The notes beneath the pieces were generated by a model. The model did no database searches and was not told where the DNA came from. It saw only the letters and a list, made by a program, of their open reading frames with translations. From positions 736,449 through 800,448 of the forward strand of contig NZ_PEIH01000005.1 in NCBI RefSeq assembly GCF_002904345.1: 64,000 nucleotides of DNA, read 5' to 3'. The translations under genes were made by a program, and so were the position numbers. The DNA comes from Bacteroidetes bacterium endosymbiont of Geopemphigus sp. GTDB taxonomy: Bacteria; Bacteroidota; Bacteroidia; Flavobacteriales; Blattabacteriaceae. Position 1 is the stretch's first letter. Every line of letters starts with the position of its first letter. Positions 7,615 through 15,623 of this stretch are shown here, in pieces.

Positions 7615-8276
7615 TTATTTATTTAAACATAAAGCAGCTTCCTCGGAAAAATAAGTAGTGATAAAATAAGCCCCCGCGCGCTTAAAGCAAAGGAGACTCA
7701 AGCATCGCTTCTTTACCTTCAATCCAGACTTGTCGATTAGCTGCCTTAATTTCATCGCATACTCTCCACTTCCTTGATAGGGAAGCTACGGGAACATCGA
7801 AATGATCCATGACGCTACGGACGATGTCCAAATAAGGAAAAACCGGTTTAATCATATACATCAGCTCCTTCTTCAACATCGGAAGATACTTCTCGAAGCG
7901 CTTCCCGCAAGTTATGATAGTCTATCTGATAAGTCTTTTTATCTCCAAAACCCGGTACGGAATCAAAAACCTCGCGAAAAGGACCATAAAAATGACTGGC
8001 GTATTTGCCGCTATCGCTATAAATCATAATACCTTTATGAACAAATCATTCCCATCTAAACAACTACAAATAGCTCCTATACGCCCATCCATCATATCAG
8101 ACGCTAAACATCGGACATGCTTGAAATTTCTTCTTTTTTATTTTTTCCTTCGAAAATAAATAGCGACGCCTTCAGATCATCAACGCTCAATTTGGTTCTT
8201 GTATCATCTTACGAAGATCCTCTTGCATACACAATCTTATATATCTATTAAGAAGTAATAAAGGAAATTTTTTCAT
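7615..8276 (-). pseudogene. hemB: hemB (porphobilinogen synthase) with a large internal deletion and frameshifts
   Basis: HemB condenses two 5-aminolevulinate molecules to porphobilinogen. Reading the minus strand from ATG at 8276: a start-like segment ending LRKMIQE, then LSVDDLKASLFIFEGK and KKEEISSMS, which matches the HemB N-terminus. The sequence then jumps to [92 protein letters not shown]-like and KRAGA...TYF, ending LCLNK at 7615. Roughly 130-150 codons between the N-terminal part and SDMMDGR are missing, including one catalytic-lysine region, and several frameshifts remain. About 220 codons are left of a usual 325-330. The gene lies downstream of hemE, as in flavobacterial haem clusters. 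Confidence 0.9.
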
Positions 8277-8309
8277 AATTTATTTGTAATAAAATACAAT
8301 TCTATTATA

Positions 8310-8317
8310 TAAATTTG
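8310..8317 (+). promoter_or_regulatory. Putative -7 element TAAATTTG
   Basis: Matches the Bacteroidota -7 consensus TAnnTTTG and lies 23 bases before the ATG at 8340. A TTTG at 8283-8286 could serve as -33, but the spacing of 23 is slightly long. Confidence 0.5.
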
Positions 8318-8339
8318 TGTCTGATAAAAAAATAAGACT

Positions 8340-8714
8340 ATGATCAAATGGAAAATTCAACTACTTCTCGGAATGACATTAATAGGCCAGTTATCAGCCC
8401 AAGAAAGTTCAAAAAAAAAAGAAATAAAAATTTCGAAAAATTCTCCGTCGAATCATTTGAAAGAAAATTCGAGCATTTCCCACTACGTAGTTGAATGCCA
8501 TCTCGTATATCAGCCTGAGGATAAAACAAAAAAGGTTTCAAAAATGTGTCTTTATGACATGTTGGGAAATTCATTAATTGAGCAGAAATTTTCTGTTGAG
8601 AAATCTATGAATAACTATACCATAAATTTGCAAGAAATTCCGGCAGGAACATATCACCTTAAGATTTCATTTTCTGATCATACGCATATTCTAAAAGAGG
8701 TTAAAAAAAAATGA
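8340..8714 (+). CDS. Small secreted protein with a sorting-domain-like C-terminus
   Basis: 124 residues with a signal peptide (MIKWKIQLLLGMTLIGQLSAQ), so exported. The mature N-terminal part is Lys/Ser/Asn rich. The C-terminal 65 residues have the pattern of a short immunoglobulin-like beta domain: MCLYDMLGNSLIEQKF, then YTINLQEIPAGTYHLKIS, then HTHILKEVKKK. This resembles the type IX secretion type A sorting domain (LYD..G......INLQ.L..GTY.LK......K.VK) and also the DUF3244-like small domain; I cannot choose between them. It lies between hemB and hemE on the opposite strand, at the position where flavobacterial clusters often carry other genes. The frame is intact and has its own promoter-like element, so it is probably expressed. 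Role unknown. Confidence 0.65.
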   Translation: MIKWKIQLLLGMTLIGQLSAQESSKKKEIKISKNSPSNHLKENSSISHYVVECHLVYQPEDKTKKVSKMCLYDMLGNSLIEQKFSVEKSMNNYTINLQEIPAGTYHLKISFSDHTHILKEVKKK

Positions 8715-8726
8715 TTTTACTCTTCT

Positions 8727-9746
8727 TTACCGGTATTCTTTAATCACTTCCACAAAGGCCTGAGCATTCTCCACCGGAGTTTCAGGTAGTATTCCGTGGC
8801 CGAGATTCGCTATATAAGATTGAGAGTCAAACTCACGAAGCATCCTCAGTGTTTTCTCTTTAACCTGAGAAATAGGCGCTAACAATTGTACAGGATCAAG
8901 ATTGCCCTGAAGCGTAAGCGCTCCAACAAAATTCCTTGCCTTATCGGCAGGGACTGTCCAATCCAGACCCAAAGCCGATACTCCTGATTCACTCATACGC
9001 GAGAGCGCATGCCAGCAACCTTTAGCAAAAACAATAACCGGCGCATAGGGACATAGGCTTTCAACGATTTTTTGTGTGTACCTCCACGAAAAGAGTTCGT
9101 AATCTTGCGGAGATAGTACACCCCCCCAGCTATCAAAAATCTGTATGACATCAGCGCCGCTTTCGACTTTCTTAAGCAGATAGGCAATGGTAGTTTGCGT
9201 GATCTTTTCTAAAAGTCTATGTGCAGCTGCAGGCTGGGAGAATCCAAAAGCCTTTACACTATTAAAAGTCTTAGAACCTCTACCCTCTACAGCGTAGCAA
9301 AAAATTGTCCAGGGTGCTCCAGCAAATCCTATTAAAGGAACGCGATTTTTCAGAGCTTGTTTGCTTAGGCGAATGCCCTCAAACACATAAGAAAGCTCTT
9401 CTTGTACTTGCGGACATTTCACCCGATCTGCCTGCTCTATTGAACGAATAGGATACTCCAAAAAAGGACCTTCATTTTCTTTCATTTGAAAGTCTAATCC
9501 CATGGCTTGCGGAACCACGAGTATATCTGAAAACAAAATCGCCGCATCTACGCCAATCTGATGTACAGGCATGCAAGTTATCTCAGCTACGAGTTCAGGA
9601 GTACGACAGCGCGTAAAAAAGTCATATTTTTCCTTCAGCTTTCTAAAACTCGGAAGGTAACGCCCGGCCTGACGCATCATCCATACAGGAGGACGAGAGA
9701 GTTTTTCGCCCTTAAGCGCACGTAATAACAAATCATTTTGTAGCAT
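8727..9746 (-). CDS. hemE: Uroporphyrinogen decarboxylase
   Basis: HemE removes four carboxyl groups from uroporphyrinogen III to give coproporphyrinogen III in the cytoplasm. The 339 residues are the usual length. The signature RQAGRYLP is at residues 25-32, the catalytic-Asp region LFSDILV has Asp 74, and [16 protein letters not shown] and [11 protein letters not shown] are present. ATG at 9746 lies inside the end of hemD (14-base overlap), which suggests translational coupling. The gene looks intact although hemA and hemB in the same cluster are broken; unless the pathway is rescued by other copies or by imported intermediates, this enzyme has no substrate. Confidence 0.96.
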
Positions 9747-10404
9747 GAAAATATTTTTTTATGAGCTGAATTAAAGAAATAGCCGATGGTTTTTCCGGAG
9801 AGAAAACCTCATAAACCCCTGCAGATGAAAGGGCCTCCGAAGTGGTTTTACCGATGGCAAAATAACACGTGTTTTGCGAAATACTATTTTTCCTGAAAAA
9901 AGAAATCACGGCCGAAGGGCTGAAAAAAATTATTGCCTGATAAGACCCGGGAAGCGCGTAAGGACATAATGATGTATGATATACTTCATAACGATTTAAA
10001 GAACATCCTTTTAAAGAATCAGCGATATGATCCAAGCTGCGCGTCCCGCAAAACCAATCGTAAGGCCCTTTCGGAAGCTCATCCTTGTTCAATAGCGAAA
10101 AATCCCGAGCATAATCTTTTTGAATCGTAACTTTCACACCCAATTTTTCAAGTAAAAAAGCAGTCTGATCACCCACCACGAAGATCTTTTTCCCTCGAAG
10201 GATTTCTGCGGAAAAATTTTGGCAAAATCCCTTAACGGCATTTCTACTGGTAAAAATCAGCACATTATTTAAAGCAGGTTTTTTCGGAAGAGAAATATAC
10301 TTTATAGCAATAAAATCACGCATATTTATCGAAAAAAGTTCGCAGGAAAAAGAGCCGAGAAGTTCTCCAGGAAGCATTTTCGTAAAGAAGATCTCAATTA
10401 TCAT
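9733..10404 (-). CDS. hemD: Uroporphyrinogen-III synthase
   Basis: HemD closes and inverts ring D of hydroxymethylbilane to form uroporphyrinogen III. The family is poorly conserved; assignment rests on length (223 residues, normal 230-260), position immediately before hemE with overlapping ends, and the pattern of two alternating alpha/beta lobes: [11 protein letters not shown] near residue 50, [19 protein letters not shown] near 70-90, and [14 protein letters not shown] followed by [13 protein letters not shown] in the second half. Those are the typical TSxNAV and FxSPSAV/AIGxxT motifs. Start ATG at 10404. No lesion visible. A dead ktrA lies directly upstream, so the original transcription from hemA/hemC is interrupted by about 2.2 kb of pseudogenes. 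Confidence 0.85.
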
Positions 10405-10425
10405 CTGAAGTATTCTTTACAAACT

Positions 10426-11089
10426 TCATGATAGCTTTATTAGCTCCAAAAAGCACACCAGTATATCGCTGTTTTGTAAAATGGTCTCTCCGGTGACCAA
10501 ACCCTTTACTTCTTTCTTTTCGTCCTTTGTAATAGAGATTTTTTCCAGCTCACAAATAATAGTAACGAGCGAAACTGCGTATTTTTTAGTCAAATCGAGC
10601 TCTTTTATAGGTCTTCCATTAAATATCATCAGCGAAACTACTTCAGCGATAGAATGTTTATTATCCATGTGACAGTAATCTAAGGCATAATTAAAAGAAA
10701 TTATTTTGGTCAGTCGAAAAGCCGCGTCTTGTTCAGGGTGTACCACATCAGGGATCCCAATAGTCTCGAGAATGGCTTCGTGAATATTAGAATGAGAGCG
10801 ACTGATAATTCGCAATTATTCGTATTTTTAAAATAGCCGTAGAAACTATAGAAGCGCCTTCATCCTCGCCTGTGGATAACAATGGCTAAATGAGCTTGCT
10901 GCATAGGCAACGGCTTATAAACCGCCTCGTTTGTAGCGTCCATGCATACCATATACTGGATATGATCTTTCAGAAGATCAACTTTTTCCATATTATTATC
11001 TACGACGAATACTCCATGGCTATTCTTCGTAAGGTTTAATGCAAGAGATCTTCTAAAATTCCCAAGACCTATTAAATAATGACTCTCAT
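10426..11089 (-). pseudogene. ktrA: ktrA/trkA: regulatory NAD-binding subunit of a K+ channel, frameshifted
   Basis: KtrA-type RCK proteins form a cytoplasmic ring that gates the TrkH/KtrB potassium channel. The minus strand from about 11089 gives an N-terminal Rossmann segment (IGLGNF then SLALNLTKNSHG, VFVVDNNMEKVDLLKDHI, MDATNEA) that is frameshifted near its start and again near 10830. The rest reads as one frame at 10426-10815: ISRSHSNIHEAILETIGI, DVVHPEQDAAFRLTKII and a TrkA-C-like end. The complete family is about 220-230 residues, which the 664-base span matches. It directly follows the trkH remnant, the normal gene order for this transporter. Function is lost because the NAD-binding lobe cannot be joined to the C-terminal lobe. 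Confidence 0.85.
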
Positions 11090-11094
11090 CGCTC

Positions 11095-12594
11095 TTAATT
11101 GATTAAAATATTCTCTTTAAAATAGAGGTAATACTGTTCGTACGTCGGAGCAATCCTATCAAAAGTTTAAAAGTTCCTATTCTTCCTACAAACATAAATA
11201 CGATCAAAACACATTTGCTTCCCGTTGATAAATAAGGAGTAATTCACAGTGAAAGCCTCGTAGTGGAAAAATCGAAAAGAACTCGAAATATAGCCAGAAT
11301 ATTTAACTAGGATTAAATCAAGTATGAAAAATTCCTATGCCTATGATCAATGAAAAAAGCATAATAATGGCAAAAACACGTTTGACCGAATCGTAGGGAA
11401 TTTCCTTTCCGAATATTTCGAGTCGACCTCTTAACCTTGTATCAAAGAGAAAATATTCATTATAAGTTAATGTAAAAGTACTTGTTTTTATACCATCTCC
11501 CGTGGAGGCTGGCGAGGCGCCGATCCACATTAAAAACATATGATTTAAAGCCCTATATAATTATAAAATTAAATACAATATTAAATCCTATTCCTCCAAG
11601 AATTAACAAAACAGCCATAGTAATCTATAAGAAATAGTTAAAGCGGAACATATAGGAATATAAACCCTAGGAAAGGGTAGAAAAACCTGTATTACAAAAG
11701 CCAGAAACAGCATGAAAAATCGAAAAAAATAAAGGACGGTCAATCTCTAAAATCTCTCTATTTGCTATAGAAAAATAAATTAACACGGCGCAGATTCCCT
11801 CTAGGCGAAGATTCCCTCTATAATTAAGAGTAAAGCCTACAATTTTTACGGCCAACCCAAGAACATTGTTACAGAGCATCGGAATTCAAAAAATTACTTA
11901 CGTGCAAGCATTCCTTAAAAGAAGCGCCTCGTCGAAAAAAATAACCGAAAAACGAAATAATGATCAAAATACCCAACCCTCTTAATTGTATAAGTATCAA
12001 AATAATTAGCTTTCCAAAAAATGTAAAGTCTTTAGCCGTATCAATCGCTGTTAATCCTGTAACACAAACAGCGCTTATAGAAGTTAAAAATGCATCCGCA
12101 AAAGATATATCATGCACCGTAGTTCCAGGAAACAGCAAGAGACCTGCTCCGCTAAACGTCAGCAATAAGAAGCTCGTTGCGATATTAAAAGAGGGGTTAT
12201 TTATCCGTGTATACAATTTTTGCATAGCGCGAGCCATTCTGATAAGAAGATAAAACAGAAGTCCGATAGTTAAAATCGTTTCGGTATATCGGTATATTTT
12301 AAATTTTCATAAGCAGACTCATTTTTATCCCAATACATACATATGAGTTCAGATAGTAAAGAAATAAACAACACCGTGAGAGAAAAAACGATCATCGATC
12401 GATAGTTTTTCTATGAAAACCCCTCTCAAAGAGAATAAAAATGTGAACAAACACAGGAAAAGCGGTCATTCCTAAAAAATCCTCGCATATAGCGACGGTT
12501 CTACTCCATCAGGATGCGAGCCTATGCTGATGATTATATGAAGGAGAATTACCGGGGTGGTAAAAGGCAATATTTTACTTAAACGTATAGACAT
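11095..12594 (-). pseudogene. trkH: trkH/ktrB: potassium channel subunit, multiply frameshifted
   Basis: TrkH/KtrB is the membrane pore of a K+ uptake system. The minus strand from ATG near 12594 shows N-terminal debris (PSLYARIF), then a well preserved block at 11869-12237 with LLLFPGTTVHDISFADAF, TSISAVCVTGLTAIDTAKDF, GKLIILILIQLRGLGILI and FFRRGASFKE. Further pieces are FHAVSGFCNTGFSTLS (a pore-loop CNTGFS signature), WIGASPASTGDGIKTSTF and a terminal KENILIN with stop at 11095. The selectivity-filter glycines can be found but lie in different frames. The 1.5-kb span is close to a short TrkH. The partner ktrA follows within a few bases and is also broken, so the whole K+ uptake unit is lost at this locus. 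Confidence 0.9.
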
Positions 12595-12599
12595 ATTTA

Positions 12600-13550
12600 T
12601 TATACATTACCAGATGCCTGAGTAATGGACTTCATAAGCGCCCTTCCACCTTTATTAAAAACTTCATAAGCACATTCCTCGCCTAAGATCTCTGACATAG
12701 GGCCCCATCGATCTACTTGTATAAGCTCTTTTCCGTCTGTGCTTATAAGCGCGCCTTGAAAATGTATTTTTTGATTGATTAATAAAGCGCGGGCGCCTAT
12801 GGGCATTGAGCAGCCACCCTCAAGCGTGCGCAAAAAACGACGCTCTGCCTCCGAGGTTAGTTTTGTCTCAAAATGACTTAATCGATCACAAAGCGTAAGA
12901 AGTTCTGAATTCTCTTTCATAAGTGTTGCGGCAATTGTTCCTTGTGCTGGAGCAGACAGCATCCAATTTAATTCTTTATAGTGAAAGCCTCGAGCAGATA
13001 ATTCCTCTAAAAGGCCTATACGCTTTAGACCTGCAACTGCAAAAATTGCCCCATCCCAACGACTTTGAACAAGCTTCCGCAAACGTGTATCGATATTACC
13101 CCTTAAATCCACAATCTCATGCTGTGGATAGCGATAATGCCAAAAAGCGCTTCTGCGCAAACTTCCGGTGGCTATAGTAGCCTTGCTCGAAAAATCATCC
13201 AAAAAATGATGGGATCCTCTGTATATCAATAGATCTCTGAAATCAGAACGTGGTAAATAGGCTGAAAGTACAACGTTATTAGGAAGTTGTGTAGGTAAGT
13301 CTTTTAAAGAATGTACCGCTGTATCAATCTTTCCAGAGCGCATGGCGTCGATAAGAGTATGCGTAAATAAACCCACATTTAAACTCGAAAGCTCTCTAAA
13401 AGACACCTCAGAAAGGACATCACCTTGAGATTTGATAAGCACCAACTCAGAAGACTGCCCTAGTTCTTGCAATTGCCTTTGAAAACATTTTGCCTGCCAC
13501 AAAGCCAGACGACTCTCTCGAGTTCCGATGCGTATCTTTTTATTTTTCAA
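12600..13550 (-). CDS. hemC: Porphobilinogen deaminase (hydroxymethylbilane synthase)
   Basis: HemC polymerises four porphobilinogens to hydroxymethylbilane. 316 residues, usual length. Substrate and cofactor motifs are intact: GTRESRLALWQA at residues 9-20, HSLKDLPT at 80-87 (catalytic Asp 83), LRGNIDTRL at 149-157 and LEGGCSMPIGA with the dipyrromethane-bearing Cys 247. The start is TTG at 13550; no in-frame ATG lies near the conserved RIGTRES, and the TTG overlaps the end of the old hemA frame (its stop TAA at 13542-13544), the arrangement of a translationally coupled pair. Since hemA and hemB here are broken, porphobilinogen supply is doubtful, but the gene itself shows no lesion. Confidence 0.95.
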   Translation of the reverse strand: MKNKKIRIGTRESRLALWQAKCFQRQLQELGQSSELVLIKSQGDVLSEVSFRELSSLNVGLFTHTLIDAMRSGKIDTAVHSLKDLPTQLPNNVVLSAYLPRSDFRDLLIYRGSHHFLDDFSSKATIATGSLRRSAFWHYRYPQHEIVDLRGNIDTRLRKLVQSRWDGAIFAVAGLKRIGLLEELSARGFHYKELNWMLSAPAQGTIAATLMKENSELLTLCDRLSHFETKLTSEAERRFLRTLEGGCSMPIGARALLINQKIHFQGALISTDGKELIQVDRWGPMSEILGEECAYEVFNKGGRALMKSITQASGNV

Positions 13551-14440
13551 TAGCTTCGGACTTCAGATCAAATATTCCTCCGATAAGCGCAATACTCTTG
13601 TCAGCTTTCTTTTTATGTATAAAGATGTGGTGCGCAAAATGATAGGTAATTTTTTGTATGAATCGATGATTCACAGGTTCCTGTTGAGTTTTCCAGCCGG
13701 AATTCTTTTTTTATGACGACTTATTTTCTCATTGTATATCTCTGTAAGATAATTTTTAAATTACTGGATTACAGGCGCATTCCTTTGCATATGTTCAGTC
13801 ATTGGAAAAATTCCTTTTTAACCTCATCCAAAATGATTTCAACATTAGGAATTTCTTTCTTCCGCTGATCCATGATTTCATCGGAATGTTGACTTAATGC
13901 ATCGACATTTAGTAAATGTATACCAGGTATTTCGCTTACCAGAGGATCTACATTTTCAGGAATAGATAGATCCAAAATCAAAAGCGAACGCCTGCGATTA
14001 GAGAACATATCAGAGAGTATTACCGCTGAAGGCGCTGAGGTAGCCACGATAAGAATATCAATCTCGCGAATATCAATCTCGCAGAAAACTACCTGAAGTT
14101 GCTCGTAAGGTTTAATAAGCAGACGCCCCGAAGTCCATGAACGTGCCGTTTGATGAGTGCGATTGATCAGAGTGATATGTTTATGATCGGTATACTTGAG
14201 AAGATTTTCACAAACGTTGTGGCCAATTTTTCCCAAATCATATAAAAATATATTCTTTCTGGAAACCTCGGGAATCTCTTTTAAAATGTAGTGAACAACG
14301 ATATACGCTACCGAGGAAACACCTGTACTTAAATGAGTTTCCGATTTGATGCGTTTGCTTGCCTGAATCACCGCATTAAGTAAGCGCTCTAAAAAACAAT
14401 CGATAAAACCGAATTTTATTAAAAAATGAAACCACTTTTT
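13542..14440 (-). pseudogene. hemA: hemA (glutamyl-tRNA reductase): catalytic N-terminus missing, dimerisation domain frameshifted
   Basis: HemA makes glutamate-1-semialdehyde from Glu-tRNA, the first step of the C5 haem route. The longest open part (13799-14371) covers the NADPH-binding domain: HLSTGVSSVAYIVVHYI, KNIFLYDLGKIGHNVCENLL, ITLINRTHQTA, DILIVATSAPSAV and LLILDLSIPENVDP. Just upstream a further piece (FIDCFLERLLNAV) is in frame to about 14440, but the catalytic domain with its active-site Cys (about 130-150 codons) is gone. Downstream of a stop at 13799-13801 the dimerisation domain can be followed in other frames (MQRNAPVIQ, then FAHHIFIHKKK and IALIGGIFDLKSEAIEK) to 13542, where it overlapped hemC. 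Function is lost. Confidence 0.9.
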
Positions 14441-14726
14441 TATTTGAAAGCTGTATCATCTTTATTATAATTAATACTTAATAAGGTAAAAATGTCTAAG
14501 CTCCTTTGCAGAACCTCTAGCATACGCCATAGGGTATTTTCATAAAATATCACAACAAATTTAAATCTTGTAAAAAGGAAAAAATGCGCCCACGCAAAAA
14601 AAAATAACTCTAAAAGTTAATAATCTCTTTTTAGAATTTATCTAAATTAGCTTTTATAAAAAAGTTTTCTTCTTAAGAAGAAATATAAAATCAAGCAACC
14701 TGGCTACTTTAAGATAACTTTATCTG

Positions 14727-15623
14727 ATGGAACTATTTGTGAAATATACCCATAAAAGTAAAATAAGAGAAGTCAAGATCTCTTCGGATATTTACCTTTC
14801 ATTTATAGAGAATACGCTCAATCAGACAGATACAATAAAAAAGCGGATTGATAAACGATTTATTCAGCTTTACTTTTGCACTCGTGGCAATGCTGCGCTT
14901 ATTCTTAAGCCAGATAATCAAGGAATGCCTTTGAAGGCAGGCAAATCCTTTTTGATCTATACTCCAAATAATGATTTATCACTGAATCTTAATATCGGAC
15001 AAGAATCCGAAGTCGCCGTAGCTGCCATTTCAATAAAAAAGCTTCACAAACTTTTTTTAGAAAATGTTGAACAAATTCCCTTTCTTAACAGTAGGTGTAT
15101 AACCAAAAAATTTTATATCGAAAAAGAAATCTTACCAGCTATTCTTATGGTATTAAGTCAAATGAAACATTATTCTTCGAATACTGTGCTAGAAAAATTA
15201 TATTTCAACGCAAAGATTTGTGAACTCTTCGCTCTCTATTTTCATACCGAGCAAAGTAAGATGGATAAATGTCCCTTCTTTGCCAACGAAAATGATCTCC
15301 AGAGGATCAAATATGCCAGAGACTTGCTTATCAAAAACGTATCTCATCCTCCTTCTTTAAATAATTTGAGTATTCAATCTGGTCTAAGCAGATATAAACT
15401 TAAAGAAGGATTTAAAAACATTTTTGGCCATACTATTTATGGATATCTTCTGGATCATAAACTAAATATAGCTCGTGAAAGAATTGAAGAAAGGAAAATG
15501 CAAGTCCAGGAAGTGGCCTATTTGTTGGGCTATGAAAATCCAAGTCATTTTATCAAAGCTTTTAAGAAAAAATACGGGGTTACACCAAAGAAATATCTTG
15601 CTTCATTGCAAAAAAAATTTTGA
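14727..15623 (+). CDS. AraC-family transcriptional regulator
   Basis: 298 residues. The C-terminal AraC/XylS DNA-binding domain (about residues 200-296) has both helix-turn-helix units: PPSLNNLSIQSGLSRYKLKEGFK and MQVQEVAYLLGYENPSHFIK followed by AFKKKYGVTPKKY. The N-terminal 190 residues form a less conserved ligand or dimer domain. The gene diverges from the haem cluster starting with hemA, with about 290 bases between. A neighbouring AraC regulator next to hemA is common in flavobacteria, so a role in haem or iron control is plausible but inferred. No lesion is seen; if its former targets were hemA-hemB it may now be losing its purpose. Confidence 0.88.
   Translation: MELFVKYTHKSKIREVKISSDIYLSFIENTLNQTDTIKKRIDKRFIQLYFCTRGNAALILKPDNQGMPLKAGKSFLIYTPNNDLSLNLNIGQESEVAVAAISIKKLHKLFLENVEQIPFLNSRCITKKFYIEKEILPAILMVLSQMKHYSSNTVLEKLYFNAKICELFALYFHTEQSKMDKCPFFANENDLQRIKYARDLLIKNVSHPPSLNNLSIQSGLSRYKLKEGFKNIFGHTIYGYLLDHKLNIARERIEERKMQVQEVAYLLGYENPSHFIKAFKKKYGVTPKKYLASLQKKF

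What the first reader, a model, noticed from the sequence alone, without database searches (positions are those of the whole stretch)
7615..14440. Haem cluster with hemC, hemD, hemE intact but hemA and hemB dead
The minus-strand cluster keeps the ancestral order hemA-hemC-...-hemD-hemE-...-hemB. hemA has lost its catalytic N-terminus and is frameshifted; hemB has an internal deletion of about 130-150 codons plus frameshifts, and hemF, often in this cluster, was not found. hemC/D/E show no lesion and keep catalytic residues. Either the surviving three genes are relics about to decay, intact hemA/hemB (or an alternative ALA source) exist elsewhere, or porphobilinogen is imported from a host, which would be an unusual metabolic patchwork.
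Basis: partly seen in the sequence, partly recalled or inferred. Interest (0 to 1): 0.72.

Follow-up and report, generated by a model that had tools for sequence, protein, structure and literature searches.

The report
Symbiont haem pathway starting from porphobilinogen
This bacterium, probably an insect symbiont related to the cockroach symbiont Blattabacterium, has lost all three enzymes that make porphobilinogen but keeps all six that turn porphobilinogen into haem, so it most likely takes that half-made building block from its host.

Summary
In the window hemA and hemB are multiply broken, while hemC, hemD and hemE are lesion-free and keep nearly all invariant residues. Searching the whole 1.318 Mb genome sharpens it: hemL, at another locus, is also dead. 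No second hemA or hemB and no ALA synthase was found in the assembly. All later steps are intact (hemC, hemD, hemE, hemN, hemJ, hemH). The cut falls exactly at porphobilinogen (PBG), and intact cytochromes show that haem is needed. About 9 frameshifts or stops per kb in the dead genes (including trkH and trkA inside the same cluster), against none in 5.6 kb of the six kept genes, argues against relics.

In the same family, 11 sampled ~600 kb genomes (almost certainly Blattabacterium) keep hemC, most with hemD, in the order hemC-trkH-trkA-hemD, without hemA or hemB. dN/dS is about 0.2-0.3, and the one genome read in full also has siroheme and sulfite-reductase genes. Published Blattabacterium models already assume host-supplied PBG, for siroheme. 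What appears new is PBG-to-haem in a relative with a larger, decaying genome.

Best explanation: host PBG is imported and finished to haem. Import itself is inferred; no importer is identified.

The parts
13555..14446 (-). hemA pseudogene (glutamyl-tRNA reductase): about 123 N-terminal residues gone, 2 frameshifts, 1-2 stops; longest open piece 13799-14371
   Evidence: and (frame-aware alignment to three Flavobacteriales HemA; TIGR01035 104 bits, below the 209.55 cut-off, profile 144-329 of 416)
12600..13550 (-). hemC, porphobilinogen deaminase, 316 aa, intact (TTG start); the dipyrromethane-cofactor Cys motif (GGCSMPIG) is present
11098..12590 (-). trkH pseudogene (K+ uptake), approximate limits; ancestral neighbour of hemC, intact in most related g9 genomes
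   Evidence: Neptunitalea order hemC-trkH-trkA-hemD; trkH in g9 genomes; 13 frameshifts called, 3 stops; gene name by homology and position
10450..11075 (-). trkA pseudogene (K+ uptake), approximate limits
   Evidence: 4 frameshifts, 1 stop; gene name by homology and position
9733..10404 (-). hemD, uroporphyrinogen-III synthase, 223 aa, intact; overlaps the hemE start by 14 bases
8727..9746 (-). hemE, uroporphyrinogen decarboxylase, 339 aa, intact, about 64% identical to free-living Flavobacteriaceae
7618..8276 (-). hemB pseudogene (porphobilinogen synthase): N-terminal remnant about 8104-8276 and C-terminal remnant 7618-8101, about 113 residues missing between, about 6 frameshifts
14727..15623 (+). 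AraC-type regulator, 298 aa, intact, divergent from hemA; the same neighbour occurs in free-living Flavobacteriales, so it may regulate haem genes (inference)

Best explanation
The organism makes haem from imported porphobilinogen (PBG). Shown: the three genes that make PBG from glutamyl-tRNA (hemA, hemL, hemB; two loci) are pseudogenes with no replacement in the assembly; the six genes from PBG to haem (hemC, hemD, hemE, hemN, hemJ, hemH; four loci) are intact; haem-requiring respiratory enzymes are intact. Inferred: PBG, which animals make in the cytosol, comes from the host (or a co-resident microbe) by an unidentified transporter. HemC joins four PBG into hydroxymethylbilane, HemD closes it to uroporphyrinogen III, and HemE, HemN, HemJ and HemH finish haem b. 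In related ~600 kb genomes PBG is probably taken up too, but turned by HemC and HemD into uroporphyrinogen III for siroheme.
For: Dead hemA and hemB. Dead hemL, with 8-10 frameshifts, 3-4 stops and a ~39-residue deletion. Intact hemN (397 bits, cut-off 325), hemJ, hemH (338 bits, cut-off 27). No ALA synthase found: the only candidate scores best as bioF (321 bits, below its cut-off) against 214 for ALA synthase (cut-off 339). Haem users intact (alternative complex III, cbb3 oxidase, cytochrome bd). No cysG, cysI or cysJ match in this genome, so uroporphyrinogen III has no seen siroheme use here. Lesions: about 43 in 4.8 kb of hemA, hemB, hemL, trkH, trkA against 0 in 5.6 kb of the six kept genes, with live and dead genes alternating inside one cluster. 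If three of nine genes died at random, the chance that they are the first three steps is 1 in 84. Family: 11 g9 genomes have hemC, most with hemD, and none has hemA, hemB, hemE, hemN, hemJ or hemH; same gene order; hemC dN/dS 0.16-0.25 in most pairs and hemD 0.17-0.32 at dS below 0.5; HemC and HemD trees place this genome as their sister (support 0.99); one such genome holds SUMT, CysI, CysJ and a precorrin-2 dehydrogenase-like gene. Published Blattabacterium models require host porphobilinogen (PMC3287516, PMC3819652).
Against: No PBG transporter is identified. A POT-type peptide transporter is intact here, but nothing ties it to PBG, and no homologue was found in G243. The assembly has 5 contigs and 92% estimated completeness, so a replacement hemA-hemL-hemB set in a gap is possible, though nearly all ribosomal proteins tested, rRNA and tRNAs for all 20 amino acids are present. 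dN/dS could not be computed in this lineage itself (no close relative held). HemJ is below the strict NCBIfam cut-off (104 against 138 bits), though over Pfam's.
Confidence: 0.72

Rival explanations
1. Relics: the organism now gets haem ready-made, and hemC, hemD, hemE, hemN, hemJ and hemH are unused genes that have not yet decayed.
For: Genome decay is in progress: hemA, hemL, hemB, trkH and trkA are dead and only about two thirds of the assembly lies in ORFs of at least 100 aa. Related g9 genomes lack hemE-hemH although the one read in full still has cytochromes, so haem can evidently be obtained by symbionts of this family. Three g9 genomes show hemC/hemD decay.
Against: Zero lesions in 5.6 kb where about 50 would be expected at the rate of the dead genes, and about 25 at half that rate. 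Six genes at four loci are all intact. Invariant residues are kept, 145 of 151 in HemE.
Confidence: 0.13
2. Hidden complete pathway: intact hemA, hemL and hemB (for example on a plasmid or in an assembly gap) replace the dead copies.
For: Draft genome with 5 contigs and 92% estimated completeness.
Against: Three genes at two loci would all need replacing and all fall in gaps. The assembly holds rRNA, tRNAs for all 20 amino acids and nearly all ribosomal proteins tested. Whole-assembly searches find no other copy. No family member but this one has any hemB match in the 398-genome sample.
Confidence: 0.09
3. PBG comes from a co-resident bacterium rather than from the animal host.
For: Symbionts of this family often live beside a second symbiont (own knowledge); nothing here excludes it.
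Against: Animal cells make PBG in the cytosol (own knowledge), so no second symbiont is needed; the host and its other microbes are unknown.
Confidence: 0.06

Closest known systems
Blattabacterium cuenoti tetrapyrrole module (HemC/HemD to siroheme, PBG assumed host-supplied; PMC3287516, PMC3819652)
   Same: Same family by the tool's taxonomy if g9 is Blattabacterium; no hemA or hemB; hemC and hemD kept in the same order around trkH-trkA; PBG as the entry metabolite.
   Different: There uroporphyrinogen III feeds siroheme for sulfite reductase, and hemE, hemN, hemJ and hemH are absent. Here siroheme and sulfite-reductase genes were not found and the module runs to haem, with the upstream genes still visible as pseudogenes.
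Tail-only haem pathways of host-associated Bacteroidota such as Porphyromonas (PMC4700951)
   Same: Partial haem pathways in Bacteroidota that depend on outside tetrapyrroles.
   Different: Most Porphyromonas keep only HemH and often HemY/HemG; the break is far later in the pathway than PBG.
Eukaryote-symbiont splits of haem synthesis (Strigomonas and its symbiont; legume-rhizobium ALA supply)
   Same: One pathway divided between host and bacterium.
   Different: There the symbiont supplies the host or receives ALA (own knowledge); here the inferred hand-over is PBG from host to bacterium.

Membership tests
Functional PBG-to-haem pathway (protoporphyrin branch) | Intact HemC, HemD, HemE, coproporphyrinogen oxidase, protoporphyrinogen oxidase and ferrochelatase | tested here: met
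   (sequence only; activity not tested)
Complete bacterial (C5) haem pathway | Intact HemA, HemL and HemB | tested here: not met
C4 (Shemin) haem pathway | ALA synthase | tested here: not met
   only candidate scores best as bioF, 214 bits for ALA synthase against a cut-off of 339
PBG-importing tetrapyrrole module (Blattabacterium-like) | hemC and hemD kept under selection without hemA and hemB | tested here: met
   (selection measured by dN/dS in g9 genomes only; by lesion counts here)
PBG-importing tetrapyrrole module (Blattabacterium-like) | Uptake of PBG from the host | not testable with these tools
   no transporter identified; only published model assumptions
Blattabacterium siroheme module | SUMT/CysG-type enzymes and sulfite reductase downstream of HemD | tested here: not met
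   no cysG, cysI or cysJ match in this genome; present in G243

The most novel reading that the evidence does not exclude
Porphobilinogen is a standing currency passed from insect host to Blattabacteriaceae through a dedicated importer. The family has lost hemA, hemL and hemB at least twice (young pseudogenes here, complete loss in the Blattabacterium-like genomes), each time cutting at PBG, and different members spend it on different cofactors (haem here, siroheme there).
Probability: 0.35. Interest if true: 0.8.

Novelty: new variant of a known kind. Interest (0 to 1): 0.6.

Why it matters
It catches a symbiont giving up the front half of an essential pathway while keeping the back half, which shows the order in which haem synthesis is handed to a host and names the metabolite that must cross. 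It also gives sequence support for a porphobilinogen supply that so far stood mainly as a requirement in metabolic models of Blattabacterium, and it predicts an unknown PBG transporter.

Tried and rejected
Hidden copies: whole-assembly searches with PF00490, PF00745, TIGR00713 and tblastn with Flavobacteriales HemA/HemB gave only the broken copies. Loss of coproporphyrinogen oxidase was considered because hemF is absent and dropped when hemN was found. ALA synthase was considered for C1:122833-124041 and rejected as bioF-like. Assembly error as the cause of lesions was rejected: five genes at two loci, large deletions included, while interleaved genes are clean. Horizontal gain of hemC/hemD was rejected by tree and gene order. 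The organism and its host could not be named; paper searches for a matching genome found none, and a search for papers on PBG uptake by hemB mutants found none.

Full report
What was checked. The window lies at C4:736449-800448 of a 1,317,719-base genome in 5 contigs, 92% complete by the tool's estimate. I took the whole assembly and searched it. On the minus strand the order is hemA (dead), hemC, trkH (dead), trkA (dead), hemD, hemE, hemB (dead), with an intact AraC-type regulator divergent from hemA. Free-living Flavobacteriales carry hemA-hemC-hemD-hemE-hemF-hemB, 45 of 80 loci in full with hemH near by, and Neptunitalea also has trkH-trkA between hemC and hemD. The arrangement is therefore ancestral.

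The lesions. Frame-aware alignment gives, for hemA, loss of about 123 N-terminal residues, 2 frameshifts and 1-2 stops; for hemB, about 113 residues missing in the middle and about 6 frameshifts; for trkH, 13 called frameshifts and 3 stops; for trkA, 4 and 1. Some frameshifts called close together may be one event. hemC, hemD and hemE have none. The remnants of hemA, hemB and hemL are still about 40-60% identical to free-living relatives, in the range of the intact hemC (47%) and hemE (64%), so they probably died fairly recently.

The rest of the pathway. hemL, about 100 kb away, is also dead: 8-10 frameshifts, 3-4 stops and a deletion of about 39 residues. hemN, hemJ and hemH are intact. hemF and a TIGR00562-type oxidase are absent, but hemN and hemJ cover those steps. 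No ALA synthase was found: the nearest gene scores best as bioF. So every step that makes porphobilinogen is broken and every step after it is whole. If three of nine genes died at random, the chance of hitting exactly the first three is 1 in 84. Haem is needed: alternative complex III with a multihaem subunit, cbb3 oxidase and cytochrome bd are intact.

Are the kept genes relics? The dead genes carry about 43 frameshifts and stops in 4.8 kb. The six kept genes carry none in 5.6 kb, where about 50 would be expected at the same rate and about 25 at half of it. Dead and live genes alternate within one cluster, so regional mutation or assembly error does not explain the contrast. Invariant positions are kept at 72/82, 12/14 and 145/151 in HemC, HemD and HemE. 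A very recent loss of use cannot be excluded.

Relatives. In the tool's taxonomy the genome shares a family with 200-600 kb genomes. Among 398 genomes of the order, no other member of that family has hemB, yet 11 genomes of genus g9 have hemC. One joint search showed that most of these also have hemD and that none has hemA, hemB, hemE, hemN, hemJ or hemH; 19 other g9 genomes had none of them. The order is hemC-trkH-trkA-hemD, with the alternative complex III genes next to it, which also lie near by here. hemC is intact in eight and broken in G110, G223 and G281; hemD is also broken in G102. Pairs with dS below 0.5 give dN/dS mostly 0.16-0.25 for hemC (one G102 pair reaches 0.34) and 0.17-0.32 for hemD, so these genes are selected without any PBG-making enzyme. 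Trees place this genome's HemC and HemD as sister to the g9 set with support 0.99.

What the relatives use it for. G243, read in full, has cysH, cysD, cysN, SUMT, CysJ, CysI and a precorrin-2 dehydrogenase-like gene in one cluster. There HemC and HemD most likely serve siroheme. Published Blattabacterium models already demand host porphobilinogen, the 2013 model for this reason (PMC3287516, PMC3819652). G243 also has cytochromes but no hemE-hemH, so it must obtain haem as well. The present genome shows no cysG, cysI or cysJ and runs the module to haem.

Reading. The best-supported account is import of porphobilinogen, probably from the host's cytosol, and completion to haem. The pathway cut, the intact downstream genes and the related genomes are shown. 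The source of PBG, its importer and the flux are inferred. Because the hemA, hemL and hemB remnants here look young while g9 shows none, the upstream loss probably happened separately in the two lineages.

Limits.

Noticed in passing
g9 genomes G102, G110, G124, G129, G139, G178, G183, G223, G243, G281, G301 (loci L203-L227, L264-L273): hemC and hemD without hemA/hemB in 11 Blattabacterium-like genomes, decaying in parallel in G110, G223, G281 and G102 while the enclosed trkA stays intact; 19 other g9 genomes searched have no trace.
   Followed up: partly
L234-L263 (G243:C1): G243 has cytochrome cbb3 and alternative complex III but no hemE-hemH, so it must obtain finished haem in addition to PBG for siroheme.
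   Followed up: partly
window 10450-12590: The potassium-uptake genes trkH and trkA are dead here but present in all ten other g9 loci examined (trkH in two pieces in G281).
   Followed up: partly
window 8340-8714 (+): A 124-aa ORF with a type IX secretion C-terminal sorting domain (Por_Secre_tail) lies between hemE and the hemB remnant, on the opposite strand; possibly a remnant of a larger secreted protein.
   Followed up: no
C4:859953-861317: Intact POT-family peptide transporter of 454 aa, a speculative candidate for PBG uptake; no homologue found in G243.
   Followed up: partly
G088: hemB matches come in three pieces and hemC in two in this 1.7 Mb genome of the same order; broken genes or assembly fragments.
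   Followed up: no
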